Shown here: one piece after another, positions 23,384-46,455 of the stretch
Position numbering within the stretch: position 1 is the stretch's first letter
How the letters are laid out: each line of letters starts with the position of its first letter
From: Xylocopilactobacillus apis
GTDB lineage: Bacteria; Bacillota; Bacilli; Lactobacillales; Lactobacillaceae
Length of the DNA stretch: 64,000 nucleotides
Direction: 5' to 3'
Assembly (NCBI RefSeq): GCF_033095965.1
Contig: NZ_AP026801.1
Location: forward strand, 1,446,001-1,510,000
Translations under genes and position numbers: made by a program
The notes under the pieces: generated by a model
The model's input: only the letters and a program-made list of their open reading frames with translations
Databases searched by the model: none
What the model was told of the DNA's origin: nothing

Positions 23384-24506
23384 ATGAGTTAAAAATATAA
23401 TAAATTAGCTCATGATATCGTTGACAAATTAGTCGGAAAATCAAACATCACTGATGCCCACTGTCCGCTTCAAAGTCAGCGACCTGATAAAATCGACGTT
23501 AAAGAATTAGAATCACTCGATGGCGTAGTTAGATATATTGTAAATGCGGGATTATATCAAGTGGTAATTGGAACTAATATTGCTAAAGTATTTGAAGAGG
23601 TTGAGAAAATCGTTGATCTTAAATTGAGTGATTACTCAACAAATGAAAAAAACAACTTTTTTGACAAAATTATTGACTTTGTAGGTGGCGTTTTCCAACC
23701 CGTCATTCCTGCCTTATCAGGCGCTGGAATGGTTAAAGCAGTCTTAATGGTATTTAATGTTATTTCTACTAAATCGCAAACATAAACGCTTTTAAATATA
23801 TTTGCCGATGGCGTCTTTTATTTCTTACCAATGTTACTGGCATTCACTGAAGCTCAAAAGTTAAAAAGCAATCAAAATTTAGCTGTCCCAGTTACAGCGA
23901 TCATGCTGCATTCTACTTGGAGTAGTTTAGTATTAATAGCCAAACCGGTTCATTTCTTTGGCATAATTCCATTTACTCTTGCCAACTATTCAGGCTCTGT
24001 AATTCCAATCCTGTTAGTAGTTTTTGTTCAAGCTTACTTGGAAAGATTTTTAAATCGCATCATTCCAAAGTCCGTGAATCTAGTGTTCATACCAATGCTT
24101 ACTTTCTTAATTATGGGAACTCTTTCCCTTTGGATTCTTACCAAAAGATTCTCTTTTGATTAGCCCTGCTAAAGGCGAAGTGATCCCTTTAAATGAAGTT
24201 AAAGACGAAGCATTTGCAACTGCCTCATTAGGGGAAGGATTTGCAGTTGAACCAATTGACGGGAAAATCGTTGTTCCTTGTGCTGGTAAAATTTTATTTA
24301 TTGCACCGAGTAAACACGCGATCGGAATCCAATCAGATGATGGACTAGAAATATTAATTCACATTGGCTTAGATACCATTGAATTAAACGGCAAATATTT
24401 CAACTCTGAAGTTACATCGGGTGATGTTGTAAAACAAGGTCAACAGTTAATGGACATCGACTTTGACAAAATCAAAGAAGCTGGATACGTGACACAAATT
24501 ATCTAA
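23384..24506 (+). pseudogene. Wrecked third PTS beta-glucoside EIIBCA gene
   Basis: Begins with a good AAGGAG site and ATG, but the third codon is a stop (MS-stop-KYNKLAHDIVDKLVGKSNIT). EIIB has lost the segment around its Cys (DAHCPL then a shift) and resumes as IDVKELESLDGVVRYI. EIIC stops at 23783-23785 (STKSQT), continues in another frame (NIFADGVFYFLPMLLAF...) and then loses its second half. At 24156 the sequence jumps into EIIA (SPAKGEVIPLNEVKDEAF, with ILIHIGLDT), which ends early at 24506. At least two stops, one shift and one large internal deletion. Confidence 0.9.
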
Positions 24507-25838
<1,332 letters not shown>

Positions 25839-25840
25839 AT

Positions 25841-25880
25841 AAAAAAAGTTTTAGCTTTATAAATCGGCTAAAACTTTTTT
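25841..25880. terminator. Bidirectional terminator
   Basis: AAAAAAAGTTTTAGC and GCTAAAACTTTTTT around an 11-nt loop: A-rich on one side and T-rich on the other, so it can stop both the plus-strand pseudogene transcript and the minus-strand gene whose last codons it contains. Confidence 0.85.
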
Positions 25881-28800
25881 AGTATTTAAAACTATGGATC
25901 TATTTTCGTCAACTTCTAGATTTTTTGACGAATAAAATCGTTTTGGAAAACATTTCTTTGAGAACTCATTTCTTGAAGGAACCAATCCTTTACTGCTTGC
26001 TAGATCGTATAAATGAGGCTCATAGTTATCATCTTTCATCCAACCTTTGATTTGTTTTAAAATCACATCTTCGATTGATGTATAGCTCGCTGTAGAACGA
26101 GTAACCACGTAACACGGCATCTTAAAGAAATCGCCAGACCAAGAAAAACAGTTATATCCTAATATTTCTGCAAAAGATGCTAGTAATTCTGGTGTCCACT
26201 CGAAATTAACATCCGGCAGATCATGAAAACTATCTGGTGTAAGAGCATTTACGGCCAGAAAATCCTGGTTACTAAGTAATTGTTCAATTTTGTCTTGAAC
26301 CGCCTGATCAATAGTATCATTTCGTTTCATATTATCTTTATCTGCATAAAATTTGCTGGAAACTGGAATTAATCCTGACTTTTTAAGATCGTCATTTCCG
26401 CGTAAATTCCATGTCCCTTCACCCATTCCAGCATCAATAAAAATCTGTTTAATTTCTTTTAATGTTAATTGATTTTTCACATGGACTTTTAAGTATTGCG
26501 GCCATAAATCTGCCGGTTCTCTTTTTAGTGTCGGTTGATAAGTTTTTCTTAAAATAAATTCTCCCGATACTTCTACGTCTAAATTCAATGCATTAATAAA
26601 ACTTGCAAGTGCCATTTTATCATCAGTATTAGTTAACTCTGCTTCCTCAGGCCATAATTCTATGTAATTGTGATAAAAGATCTTAAGTGACAAAATTGGG
26701 TAGATTTTCAGTTCACGATTAAGATAATCAGTTAGCGAATCACCTAAAAATTCTTTGGCAAAATTAACATCCAGCCACATAACATTTTGTCCATTTAACA
26801 CAATCTCTAGATTTTTTGCCGCCTCTTGTTGCAAAGTATAATTAGCCCAACCAAATTGTTTTTTTAAATTACCTAACGAAACGGGATGATTTTGAGTTTT
26901 CAAAAATTCAACTATCTGTTCTCCGATTGTTAACGGTTGACTGCCAAGAACAAAAATATCATTATTTCGACCAGGTGAATATACAAAATCAACAGGATAA
27001 AGCCGTTGAAAAATTTGATAAAACTCATCGGTTGTCATGGATTTTGGCAGATCTTCTTTTAATTGTTCAAATAACCAAGCATCACGAACATAGTGGTAAC
27101 CATCGGCAAAATGGTCATCAACTAGTTTTTTTGCTCGTTCAAAAATTACTAGATCATAATTTTCTTTCTCAAAAAGCTTATATTTTCCCTTGCCAATCGG
27201 AATGTACTCCGATTGATTAGATAACCTTCCTTGAAACGCTCTCAAAGATGGAAATGCTTCATAACCTAACTTTTCTTTAGACCATTCATTAATTTGATCA
27301 TATTCATCAACGTCAATTATCTTAGTTTTACGATAACTGCAGTACTCTTCAATGATTTTTATTTTTGGTACTCGTTTAGTAGAAATAAGCCGTCTATTAT
27401 CTTGATCGAGCCTATAATTTAAATTGTCTATCGCCTGATTAAATTCATCAGCTTTAAGTTCTAAGTGATTATTTTCAAAAACTTGCTTAATTTCTGCGAT
27501 TGAATGAATTTGTCCATCTAACAAAATTGGCAGTAAAACATCAACAAACATTTGCAAATAATCATCACTGGTAAGAAAGTACTGATTCAAATCAGAATCG
27601 ATAATTGTACTTTCAATTAGTCGATTATTTTCTTCACTGAAATATTTACTTAATGTCATCGGCTGACATTTCCCAAGCACTAGAAGCTTAAGTGTAAAGT
27701 TATGATTTTGCCACCACTGAATAAAAACGTTAGAGACCTTCTTATCAATTTGACGGACTCTTTCCCTCGTAATTCCCCACTTTTCACCTAGTTCTTCTAA
27801 TGTCAGAATATCTGAGCTCATTTTTCGATATTTCAAAACTGCTTTTGAACGTTCATCGAGCTGATCTATAAATTCATTAACGTAATATTCAACCGAATTG
27901 GGCAAAAGATCGTTTAACAGATGCCAGCTTCTTTCAATTAAATCATCCGGGTATTGATCAAAATCTTCTTTAAAATAGATTGCGAGCGCTTTTCTTATAA
28001 TCGCCATTTGTTCGTCTTGCTCTTTATTATCAACAAAATTTTTAATCTTCTCTGGAGCATCTTTTAACGAAACGACAAATTTCTTTTTATTTAAAAGAGT
28101 ATTTATCAAACGTAAATATTCATTGATAGTAATTATTAGATCATCTGGCTCATCTTTAAGGATGAGATGTGAAAACGGCAATATTGGTAGAAATAGTTCC
28201 GGTGAATTAATCTGTTTATCAATTATTTTCGGAGCTGATTTAATTGTTGCAAGAATTTTTTGCTTTTTATTCTCTCCAATTCCAGGAAAATTAAAAATCT
28301 TGTTTAATAAATCCGGTGTAATTTGATCTGTATTTTGAATTCCGTTTTTATAAAAGGAGTTAATAATTAATCGATCTTTATTTTCATCAAATAAAATTTT
28401 TATTGGAATCGATTGATTAACATCTACAACTTCGATGTCTTCAGCTAATTCAAAATCGATAAGATTTCGAATTTTATTTTCAATAAATTTCTGTTTCCCC
28501 TTTCCAATTCCCGGCATTTTATAAATTTTCTGAAGTCTTTCTGAAGTTAGTTCATCCAGATAGGTAACACCTGCATCTGCAAAGTGATTAATAATTAAAG
28601 CATTATGCTGATAGTTAAATAACTCATCGACTTTAACTCGTTTTGAATCAAAAATTGTTAACCTTAACGGAATAATAATCGTAATCTCACTATCATTGAA
28701 AATCTGGGTTAACATTTCAAGGTTTATTCTAGAATCCAAAAAAGTAATTTGATTTAAAATAAGTCCAAATAGAGTTCCGTATGACTTTAACGCATCGAAT

Positions 28801-29144
28801 TTAGATAAAGAAATTAATAAAGTATGCTCTTCAATAAAATGTTCGATTTCAATTGGTCGCGGATCGACAACAACACAAGTATTACGATCCCAAGTAAATT
28901 TTTTAAATACATCTTCATTTTGATCCACTTGCACCGAAATGCCAAACAAACTTAATAATTGCGTTAGCTCACTGAAAGAATCTGGATTCTCTAAGTTAAG
29001 TTCTCGCAAGATGTCTGGACTAAACCAATATTGATTATCCTTTTGATTAAACTCTAGTTTAATTTCTTTTCTAATAAAAACGTCAACCCAATGCTTGACT
29101 TGTTCTTTCGTCCAAAAATTAGGAAAGAATACTCCCTCTTTCAC
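25857..29144 (-). CDS. Large protein with helix-hairpin-helix repeats and a sigma-70 region-4-like HTH
   Basis: 1095 residues, no signal peptide or membrane segment, so cytoplasmic. Two repeats resembling the RNA polymerase alpha C-terminal / helix-hairpin-helix fold: about 185-230 (...LTSERLQKIYKMPGIGKGKQ) and about 265-305 (...LLNKIFNFPGIGENKKQK). Then at about 430-485 a sigma-70 region-4-like helix-turn-helix (LTLEELGEKWGITRERVRQI). The remaining about 600 residues match nothing I recognise; no ATPase or nuclease motif is seen. Single gene, with terminators on both sides. Probably a nucleic-acid-binding or RNA-polymerase-associated protein; function unassigned. Confidence 0.8.
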   Translation of the reverse strand: MKEGVFFPNFWTKEQVKHWVDVFIRKEIKLEFNQKDNQYWFSPDILRELNLENPDSFSELTQLLSLFGISVQVDQNEDVFKKFTWDRNTCVVVDPRPIEIEHFIEEHTLLISLSKFDALKSYGTLFGLILNQITFLDSRINLEMLTQIFNDSEITIIIPLRLTIFDSKRVKVDELFNYQHNALIINHFADAGVTYLDELTSERLQKIYKMPGIGKGKQKFIENKIRNLIDFELAEDIEVVDVNQSIPIKILFDENKDRLIINSFYKNGIQNTDQITPDLLNKIFNFPGIGENKKQKILATIKSAPKIIDKQINSPELFLPILPFSHLILKDEPDDLIITINEYLRLINTLLNKKKFVVSLKDAPEKIKNFVDNKEQDEQMAIIRKALAIYFKEDFDQYPDDLIERSWHLLNDLLPNSVEYYVNEFIDQLDERSKAVLKYRKMSSDILTLEELGEKWGITRERVRQIDKKVSNVFIQWWQNHNFTLKLLVLGKCQPMTLSKYFSEENNRLIESTIIDSDLNQYFLTSDDYLQMFVDVLLPILLDGQIHSIAEIKQVFENNHLELKADEFNQAIDNLNYRLDQDNRRLISTKRVPKIKIIEEYCSYRKTKIIDVDEYDQINEWSKEKLGYEAFPSLRAFQGRLSNQSEYIPIGKGKYKLFEKENYDLVIFERAKKLVDDHFADGYHYVRDAWLFEQLKEDLPKSMTTDEFYQIFQRLYPVDFVYSPGRNNDIFVLGSQPLTIGEQIVEFLKTQNHPVSLGNLKKQFGWANYTLQQEAAKNLEIVLNGQNVMWLDVNFAKEFLGDSLTDYLNRELKIYPILSLKIFYHNYIELWPEEAELTNTDDKMALASFINALNLDVEVSGEFILRKTYQPTLKREPADLWPQYLKVHVKNQLTLKEIKQIFIDAGMGEGTWNLRGNDDLKKSGLIPVSSKFYADKDNMKRNDTIDQAVQDKIEQLLSNQDFLAVNALTPDSFHDLPDVNFEWTPELLASFAEILGYNCFSWSGDFFKMPCYVVTRSTASYTSIEDVILKQIKGWMKDDNYEPHLYDLASSKGLVPSRNEFSKKCFPKRFYSSKNLEVDENRSIVLNTKKVLADL

Positions 29145-29288
29145 TTTGAATTCACTCCGTCCTAAAAAAGTCTTATACCATATTATGCTAAAAAAGATGG
29201 CTTTTGTCGTTAATCTTTATAAAATAATCGTCAAAATATGATTTATCGAAAGAAATTTTATTTCATTTACTAAATGTTTTTCCCTAAC

Positions 29289-45165: not shown

Positions 45166-46455
45166 CTATGATCCTATCATTGAAATTGGAATGACATGAA
45201 CATGATCCTGATTACGAGTGTATGCCACCTTACCTGTATTTAATAAAACTTTTGTGACCTCAAATTCACCTTTCACCAATTCCTCAAACCAATTTAAATG
45301 TTTAACATAACTGTCTTTTGCTTCTGGGTCAGCTTTAACTTCAAATAAAATTAAATGATTTTGCTTTTGAATAATAAAATCAACCTCGTGAGTACCAGTA
45401 TGATTGCGAAAATGGGAAAGTTTAGCATCATTTGCTTCAGCATATACGATTAAACTTTGATAAACCAGTGATTCAAGAAGCTGTCCAATAAAACTCTGAT
45501 TAAAAATTCCGATATAACTTGGAACTTTATAATTTACTAATTGAGCCTGATCAACTCCTAATATTTCAAGAGCAATTGCTGGATCTAACATAAAATGTTT
45601 TGGCGCACGGGCAAGATTCGAATAGATTTTACCTACTGGCAAAAATGAAGGGACTTCATCAATAATATCGAGAATCTTTAAAGCTTCGTGATAGTATTCA
45701 ATCGTTTTACGAGATGCTGATTCAGAATTGTTAGCCATTGCAGCCTGCCAGATTGTTTGAAATTTTGTTGTGGTGCCAATAGCCGCCGCGTAAGATTTGA
45801 TCCAAGACAATAGGCTTTCAGGCTTTTTAATCATAAATCCATTTTCTTGAAAATCATGATCAACAATGTTATTTACATAACTTTGCAGCAAGAGATGGCG
45901 CGCATGTTCACTTTTATTTCTAATTCCTGGAAAACCTGACCGAAAAATTTCATCTAAATAATCTGTTAAAGTTTTATCAGTAATCCCACTAATTTTCTGT
46001 TCTTGATTCATTTCTAACAAATCGCCAACTCTTAGATAACGATCCGACATTTGTCGTTCCTCAATTGAAAAAGGACGAAGTGTCATCCGGATAATTCTTC
46101 CCGCACCGCTATGAATCCGACTATTTACTTTAATACTGCTGCCAGTAAACAACACACTCCCCGCAGGTAATCCTTGATCGACTTGGTGCCTGACAAACGA
46201 CCATACTTCAGGTAATAACTGCCACTCATCTATTAGAACTGGAATCTCATTATTTAAAATTATTTCAGGTGAATTTTTCAGCAGCAACCTGATCGATTCG
46301 TTATCTAAATCATAAACCGTCTTGGCTAACTGCAGACAAGTTTCTGTCTTACCAACCGCCTTTGCTCCCTCGATTAAAATTGCAGGTAATTCTTCTAAAT
46401 TTCTTTTGAGTAGTTGATCAATAATTCGTTTTTGGTATGCATTTGCTGATTTCAC
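45166..46455 (-). CDS. AAA-type ATPase with DUF4143 C-terminal domain
   Basis: 429 residues. Walker A in EGAKAVGKTETCLQ (about 30-40), Walker B-like VLIDEWQLLPE, FTGSS sensor; the C-terminal about 170-420 region is DUF4143 with the PD-(D/E)XK-like core (HEVDFII...ILFEVKAD). Such proteins are widespread, often in variable islands, and of unknown function; a toxin- or defence-related role has been suspected. Lies alone between the YefM/YoeB pair and surface gene 4. Confidence 0.9.
   Translation of the reverse strand: MKSANAYQKRIIDQLLKRNLEELPAILIEGAKAVGKTETCLQLAKTVYDLDNESIRLLLKNSPEIILNNEIPVLIDEWQLLPEVWSFVRHQVDQGLPAGSVLFTGSSIKVNSRIHSGAGRIIRMTLRPFSIEERQMSDRYLRVGDLLEMNQEQKISGITDKTLTDYLDEIFRSGFPGIRNKSEHARHLLLQSYVNNIVDHDFQENGFMIKKPESLLSWIKSYAAAIGTTTKFQTIWQAAMANNSESASRKTIEYYHEALKILDIIDEVPSFLPVGKIYSNLARAPKHFMLDPAIALEILGVDQAQLVNYKVPSYIGIFNQSFIGQLLESLVYQSLIVYAEANDAKLSHFRNHTGTHEVDFIIQKQNHLILFEVKADPEAKDSYVKHLNWFEELVKGEFEVTKVLLNTGKVAYTRNQDHVHVIPISMIGS

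What the first reader, a model, noticed from the sequence alone, without database searches (positions are those of the whole stretch)
25857..29144. 1095-residue protein combining RNA-polymerase-like modules: alpha-CTD/HhH repeats and a sigma region-4 HTH
Seen: two MPGIG/FPGIG repeats in contexts like alpha-CTD, then a stretch LTLEELGEKWGITRERVRQI that is the sigma-70 region-4 recognition pattern, followed by about 600 unexplained residues. No sigma region 2, ATPase or nuclease motif was seen. Inference: a large transcription-associated or DNA-binding protein, possibly regulating the adjacent surface array or part of a defence system.
Basis: partly seen in the sequence, partly recalled or inferred. 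Interest (0 to 1): 0.6.

Follow-up and report, generated by a model that had tools for sequence, protein, structure and literature searches.

The report
Solo giant DNA-binding defence protein
This lactobacillus gene makes a very large protein built almost only from DNA-binding modules, and its relatives are usually the first gene of a bacterial antivirus operon (PbeABCD), so it is probably the DNA-recognition part of a defence machine, kept here without the rest of the machine.

Summary
The ORF and motifs are real: 1095 aa, minus strand, two HhH repeats and an intact sigma-70 region 4 (Pfam E 1.2e-9). There is no sigma region 2 and no recognised enzyme. The 'unexplained' 600 residues are predicted to be about eight tandem winged-helix domains. 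The surface array is not its partner: in a sister species the gene sits at the same nrd locus with no array. Relatives are instead the first gene, often overlapping the next by 4 bp, of PbeABCD anti-phage operons on lactobacillar plasmids and in other Bacillota; proteins of like make-up hold that place in Rhodobacterales and Arthrobacter. Others lie beside PAPS-reductase genes or after a type I HsdR. I found no published description of this giant as a Pbe component. In the five lactobacillar operons carrying it, PbeA lacks its HKD nuclease domain, which bears on whether Pbe works by cleavage. The window's organism has no matching PbeA, PbeC, PbeD or DndC, so its copy is solo, fast-evolving but constrained. 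Best reading: a DNA-scanning scaffold of a Pbe-type complex, retained alone; the solo role is unknown. New variant of a known kind; mechanism inferred, not shown.

The parts
25857..29144 (-). gene for the 1095-aa giant protein (solo member of the Pbe-associated giant family)
28665..29144 (-). N-terminal region (residues 1-160; FPNFW motif), conserved in Lactobacillaceae relatives, function unknown
28443..28652 (-). helix-hairpin-helix / alpha-CTD-like repeat 1 (residues 165-234, MPGIG)
28227..28427 (-). helix-hairpin-helix / alpha-CTD-like repeat 2 (residues 240-306, FPGIG)
27693..27905 (-). sigma-70 region 4 HTH (residues 414-484), recognition helix TRERVRQ 459-465
25875..27581 (-). array of about eight predicted winged-helix domains (residues 522-1090); domain 3 (661-736) is the most conserved (66% identity to G002)
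29182..29210 (-). promoter-like site ACGACA-17-CATAAT upstream of the GTG start (weak; the region holds fewer such sites than its shuffles)
25832..25890 (.). inverted repeat with T-run at the 3' end, possible bidirectional terminator towards the convergent GH1 remnant

Best explanation
The protein is a solo member of a family of giant, apparently non-enzymatic DNA-binding proteins that often form the first gene of PbeABCD-type defence operons (giant, SF2 helicase PbeA, small PbeB, CxC-ABC ATPase PbeC, DndE-like PbeD). Its chain of modules (two HhH/alpha-CTD-like repeats, one sigma-region-4 HTH, about eight winged helices) acts as a DNA-scanning and recognition scaffold that binds DNA over a long stretch and hands the site to the helicase-ABC ATPase complex, which then blocks the invading DNA. 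Shown: domain make-up at sequence or predicted-structure level; operon linkage and gene overlap in relatives; lack of the catalytic motifs looked for; absence of partners in this genome; sequence constraint. Inferred: DNA binding, complex formation with PbeA/C/D, and invader recognition. In the window's organism the partners are gone or were never present; I infer that the solo copy is kept for its DNA-binding activity, either as an interference factor in its own right or as a regulator.
For: Near full-length homologues are the first gene of giant-PbeA-PbeB-PbeC-PbeD operons: L. plantarum plasmid A8 (26% identity over 98%), L. songhuajiangensis near an integrase-like gene, G011, G805 (profile E 1e-65) and G1115. 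The giant's stop overlaps the start of pbeA by 4 bp in five lactobacillar and two alphaproteobacterial operons. Partner identity: PADLOC PbeA 3e-147 and PbeC 4e-165; NCBIfam dnd_restrict_1 and DndD, both below their curated cut-offs in the lactobacillar proteins. In the helicase tree ten Bacillota PbeA form a supported group (98/96), all with a giant upstream. Of nine giants found by profile without prior use of their neighbourhood, four sit on pbeABCD, three beside PAPS-reductase genes and one after HsdR. Domains. The solo copy is intact; between sister species pN 0.40 vs pS 0.69, and codon position 2 is best conserved.
Against: G000 has no PbeC, PbeD or dndC and no PbeA of this type, so the operon role cannot apply as such here. 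DNA binding, complex formation and phage resistance are untested. Similarity of P0001 to the alphaproteobacterial and Arthrobacter giants is detectable mainly over sigma region 4, so those may be convergent assemblies. The full-length model is of modest quality (mean pLDDT 62.5, pTM 0.35), and winged-helix matches below Z 8 may mean only a common arrangement.
Confidence: 0.6

Rival explanations
1. Transcription regulator: the sigma-4 HTH reads a -35-like element and the HhH and winged helices bind flanking DNA or RNA polymerase, controlling its own operon (relatives) or host genes (solo copy).
For: Recognition helix TRERVRQ differs from that of Thermus sigma-A (TRERIRQ) by one conservative change; alpha-CTD-like repeats in relatives; one winged helix resembles the RNA polymerase delta subunit (Z 5.5-6.6); the solo copy has no partners left.
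Against: No sigma region 2; 1095 aa and about eight winged helices are excessive for a promoter regulator; position as first, overlapping gene of a defence operon suggests a structural partner; one family member (G430) has a degenerate sigma-4 in an intact operon.
Confidence: 0.25
2. Relic: the solo copy is left over after loss of pbeABCD and has no present function.
For: All partners missing; fast divergence from the sister species (41% vs 83-93% for neighbouring nrd/nusG proteins); the next genes on one side (PTS fragments and a GH1 gene) are broken; another solo copy in a Lactobacillus MAG is truncated.
Against: Intact 1095-codon frame, and an intact 1124-codon frame in the sister species at the same locus, with pN below pS and codon position 2 > 1 > 3 conservation; plausible expression signals.
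Confidence: 0.2
3. RNA-polymerase mimic: alpha-CTD-like, sigma-4 and delta-like modules let it bind RNA polymerase or compete at promoters, shutting down transcription of invading DNA.
For: Three module types all known from RNA polymerase.
Against: The same modules occur as plain DNA-binding parts in other defence proteins (sigma-type HTH in some DndH, PMC10853773; alpha-CTD-like domain plus wHTHs in PglW, PMC12839542); the delta match is within the range of common arrangements.
Confidence: 0.12
4. Regulator of, or partner to, the adjacent surface-protein array.
For: Adjacency on the same strand in the window only.
Against: G002 carries the gene at the same locus without the array; a terminator-like sequence separates them; no relative read sits next to such genes.
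Confidence: 0.03

Closest known systems
PbeABCD / CxC-ABC ATPase-DndE systems (PMC6459918; PMC10853773)
   Same: Relatives of this protein are the first gene of such operons in Lactobacillaceae and other Bacillota; proteins of similar make-up hold that place in Rhodobacterales and Arthrobacter.
   Different: The giant is not among the components described in the two papers; the five lactobacillar PbeA with a giant lack the N-terminal HKD nuclease (455-458 aa vs about 700); no dndC in the four Lactobacillaceae genomes tested; the window's genome has no Pbe genes.
PglW of type 2 BREX
   Same: Described as having an alpha-CTD-like domain followed by three winged helices in a large defence protein (PMC12839542); the giant from G585 matches the PglW model at 7e-11 over its alpha-CTD-like part.
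   Different: No kinase or nuclease part here; P0001 itself has no PglW hit; sigma-4 is not part of the described PglW.
MzaA of the MZA anti-phage system
   Same: Annotated as a sigma-70-like protein of a defence system; matches over sigma region 4.
   Different: Only residues 417-470 match; length and the rest differ.
DndH variants with an inserted sigma-type HTH; DndG/SspB triple-wHTH subunits (PMC10853773)
   Same: Use of sigma-type HTH or tandem winged helices as DNA-binding parts in phosphorothioate-linked restriction.
   Different: Different proteins; no HerA/FtsK or REase part here, and more winged helices.
Sigma-70 factors
   Same: Region 4 with intact recognition helix.
   Different: No region 2, so not a sigma factor by itself.

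Membership tests
Pbe-associated giant (this report) | near full-length homology to giants that precede pbeA in operons | tested here: met
   26% identity over 98% to the L. plantarum pA8 protein; 24% to L. songhuajiangensis; the profile of its clade finds the G805 giant at 1e-65
Pbe-associated giant (this report) | HhH/alpha-CTD-like repeats + sigma-4 + tandem winged helices | tested here: met
   the winged helices are predicted structure only
PbeABCD system | PbeA, PbeC and PbeD genes in the same genome | tested here: not met
   no PbeC or PbeD and only general helicases in G000; the same searches find them in G011
PbeABCD system (PT-dependent form) | phosphorothioate modification gene dndC | tested here: not met
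   no dndC in G000, G002, G011, G023; ssp-type modification genes were not searched
Sigma-70 factor | region 2 | tested here: not met
   no Sigma70_r2 match
Sigma-70 factor | region 4 | tested here: met
   Pfam 1.2e-9; Z 7.7-9.5 to sigma region 4
RNA polymerase alpha C-terminal domain | profile match of the HhH repeats | tested here: inconclusive
   35%/24% probability against own RpoA, no Pfam hit in P0001, but hits in 6 of 17 relatives or look-alikes
HARE-HTH / RNA polymerase delta winged helix | profile or fold match of the C-terminal domains | tested here: inconclusive
   no Pfam HARE-HTH hit in P0001, weak in 3 relatives; delta NTD Z 5.5-6.6
MzaA | match beyond sigma region 4 | tested here: not met
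HKD (PLD) nuclease or P-loop NTPase | HxKx4-5D or Walker A motif | tested here: not met
   (pattern search only); no enzyme-specific fold match seen
Phage resistance function | reduced plaque formation | not testable with these tools
   needs experiment

The most novel reading that the evidence does not exclude
The giant is an overlooked fifth core component of a clade of Pbe systems that takes over the work of the HKD nuclease: in Lactobacillaceae the system blocks invading DNA without cleavage by laying a long chain of DNA-binding modules on it (with sigma-4 and alpha-CTD-like parts aiming at promoters), and the solo proteins, as in this window, still act as one-gene interference factors.
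Probability: 0.2. Interest if true: 0.85.

Novelty: new variant of a known kind. Interest (0 to 1): 0.6.

Why it matters
It adds an apparently undescribed large DNA-recognition partner to a known but poorly understood antivirus system. It also exposes a natural version of that system without its nuclease domain. The published dispute over whether PbeABCD stops viruses by cleaving DNA (PMC10853773) or by blocking replication without cleavage (PMC6459918) can be tested directly with the lactobacillar operons. The solo copies raise a second testable question: whether the recognition part alone protects cells.

Tried and rejected
Surface-array regulator: rejected by synteny. C-terminal enzyme: rejected; the last 228 residues alone fold as three winged helices (pLDDT 84), and fold search brought up mostly winged-helix domains, none at Z 8 or more. 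MzaA membership: sigma-4 only. Phage origin: no match in phage records, and viral contigs gave only sigma-4 matches. A viral scan with PbeC gave only distant ABC/SMC-like hits. Sequence-level similarity among the eight winged helices: not detectable, so the repeat claim rests on predicted structure. The profile search across 395 Lactobacillales genomes added no new members. The HKD motif was first missed in PbeA because I searched with four spacer residues; the spacing is five. The HARE-HTH review by Aravind and Iyer was not held, so I cannot exclude that it mentions such architectures.

Full report
Observation. The window lies in a 2.27-Mb Lactobacillaceae genome (G000:C1:1446001-1510000; the family is inferred from the named relatives). 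The ORF at 25857-29144 (-) is open for 1095 codons. Pfam finds only sigma-70 region 4 above its cut-off, at 426-469, E 1.2e-9. The two PGIG repeats are an internal duplication (hhalign 98.7%). They are only suggestively close to the genome's own RpoA C-terminal domain (35%, 24%), but some relatives match RNA_pol_A_CTD clearly. No sigma region 2, Walker A or HKD motif was found.

The 600 residues. AlphaFold2 on a thin alignment (4 sequences) gives mean pLDDT 62.5, but mostly 70-90 over residues 530-830. The secondary structure is a regular helix-strand-helix-helix-strand-strand series at about 526-588, 594-657, 665-731, 740-790, 793-866, 878-935, 943-1016 and 1024-1086. Folded alone, residues 868-1095 reach pLDDT 84, pTM 0.79, and show three such domains. 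Foldseek and VIA-align bring up mainly winged-helix proteins (UFL1, SelB, ESCRT-II, Rpc5, cullin WHB, RNA polymerase delta) and, for residues 415-516, sigma region 4 at Z 7.7-9.5. The winged-helix matches are individually weak (Z below 8) and are used only as support for the secondary-structure pattern. Sequence comparison does not detect the repeats among themselves.

Surroundings. In sister species G002 the homologue (41-42% identity) sits beside the same nrdF-nrdE-nrdI-nusG block without the surface array. Neighbouring proteins are 83-93% identical. Between the two giants pS is 0.69 and pN 0.40; for nrdE 0.76 and 0.087. The similar pS fits similar age and vertical descent, though both values are near saturation; the giant changes several times faster at the protein level but is still constrained. 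The array is therefore a neighbour, not a partner. On the other side of the gene a PTS fragment pair and a GH1 gene are broken.

Where the relatives are. In L. plantarum plasmid A8 the homologue is followed by a helicase, a 60-aa ORF, an AAA ATPase and a 154-aa ORF. The same order occurs in L. songhuajiangensis and on plasmids BDGP2 and PC518, and in G011 without a small ORF recognised (its giant is split over two frames). PADLOC identifies PbeA (3e-147; helicase part only) and PbeC (4e-165) in G011. The order matches pbeABCD, whose published parts are an HKD nuclease-SF2 helicase fusion, a small protein, a CxC-ABC ATPase and a DndE-like protein (PMC10853773; PMC6459918). The assignment of the 60-aa and 154-aa ORFs as PbeB and PbeD rests on order and size: no family model matched them, but the alphaproteobacterial counterpart of the last gene matches dnd_assoc_4.

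How regular the link is. In 398 Bacillota genomes 22 have a PbeA at E 1e-55 or better. Of 20 loci read, five have a giant immediately upstream (G805, G543, G585, G731, G430). In the helicase tree these and the five lactobacillar ones form one supported group of ten (98/96). G430's giant has a degenerate sigma-4. Rhodobacterales plasmids (Pontibrevibacter, Ruegeria) and Arthrobacter have alpha-CTD + sigma-4 proteins at the same position, but detectable similarity to P0001 is mainly in sigma-4, so common origin of those is not shown. Searching instead with the giant profile, nine loci whose neighbourhoods had not been used gave: four on pbeABCD (G1115, G902, G1043, and G1146 with broken frames), three beside PAPS-reductase-family genes (G423, G585:C43, G451), one directly after a type I HsdR (G1120) and one solo (G642). 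I know of no description of this protein as a Pbe component; the two Pbe papers consulted (in part) do not list it, but many papers are not in the library.

The missing nuclease. Of 28 longer PbeA proteins, 27 have HxKx5D in the N-terminal part (L191 deviates); the five lactobacillar PbeA with a giant begin directly at the helicase and lack it, and the giants show no convincing HKD pair. The published disagreement on cleavage could be tested with these operons. A nuclease supplied from elsewhere is not excluded.

The window's copy. G000, G002 and G023 (which also carries a solo giant) lack PbeC, PbeD and dndC and show only general helicases with the PbeA model. The solo copy is intact and constrained, so a present function is likelier than not, but which one is open: residual interference, transcription control, or slow decay.

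Mechanism. Shown: module make-up, operon linkage, gene overlap, lack of the catalytic motifs looked for. Inferred: DNA binding along a long stretch, hand-over to helicase and ABC ATPase, discrimination of invader DNA. I put 0.6 on the scaffold reading, mainly for the family; less for the solo copy. Confidences of the rivals overlap with it, because a scaffold may also regulate.

Noticed in passing
L197:13062-14150, L202:12754-13854, L195:3730-4839: Complete sigma-70 factors (362-369 aa, regions 2 and 4) lie downstream of pbeC/pbeD in three Bacillota loci; they match the MzaA model at about 1e-30 to 1e-37 over its C-terminal part. Possibly Pbe-associated sigma factors.
   Followed up: partly
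L160:1039-5012 (G011): A second Pbe-like set directly after the first: truncated giant (533 aa), PbeC and PbeD homologues, no helicase between them.
   Followed up: partly
L229:1-11141 and L230:3181-14000: Giants (960-987 aa) upstream of a PAPS-reductase-family gene and a 1394-aa gene, a defence-like operon different from Pbe; similar genes on a Methanosphaera plasmid.
   Followed up: partly
window 29330-57913: Array of large (1541-1615 aa) proteins; the one tested has SlpA-type and Ig-like domains. It lies between nrdF and the giant and is absent at this locus in G002.
   Followed up: partly
window 23831-25838: Broken sugar-uptake cluster: two PTS fragments and a GH1 gene split over two frames, convergent with the giant gene.
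   Followed up: partly
window 45166-46455: AAA_14/DUF4143 ATPase gene standing inside the surface-protein array.
   Followed up: no
L033:11346-13151 (Schleiferilactobacillus): A GmrSD-type (DUF262; HEC-06-like) gene lies upstream of the 1409-aa solo giant.
   Followed up: no
L072:5185-10025 (L. plantarum pLQ802): Pbe operon with a full HKD-type PbeA and no giant, in the same species whose other plasmids carry giant + HKD-less PbeA.
   Followed up: partly
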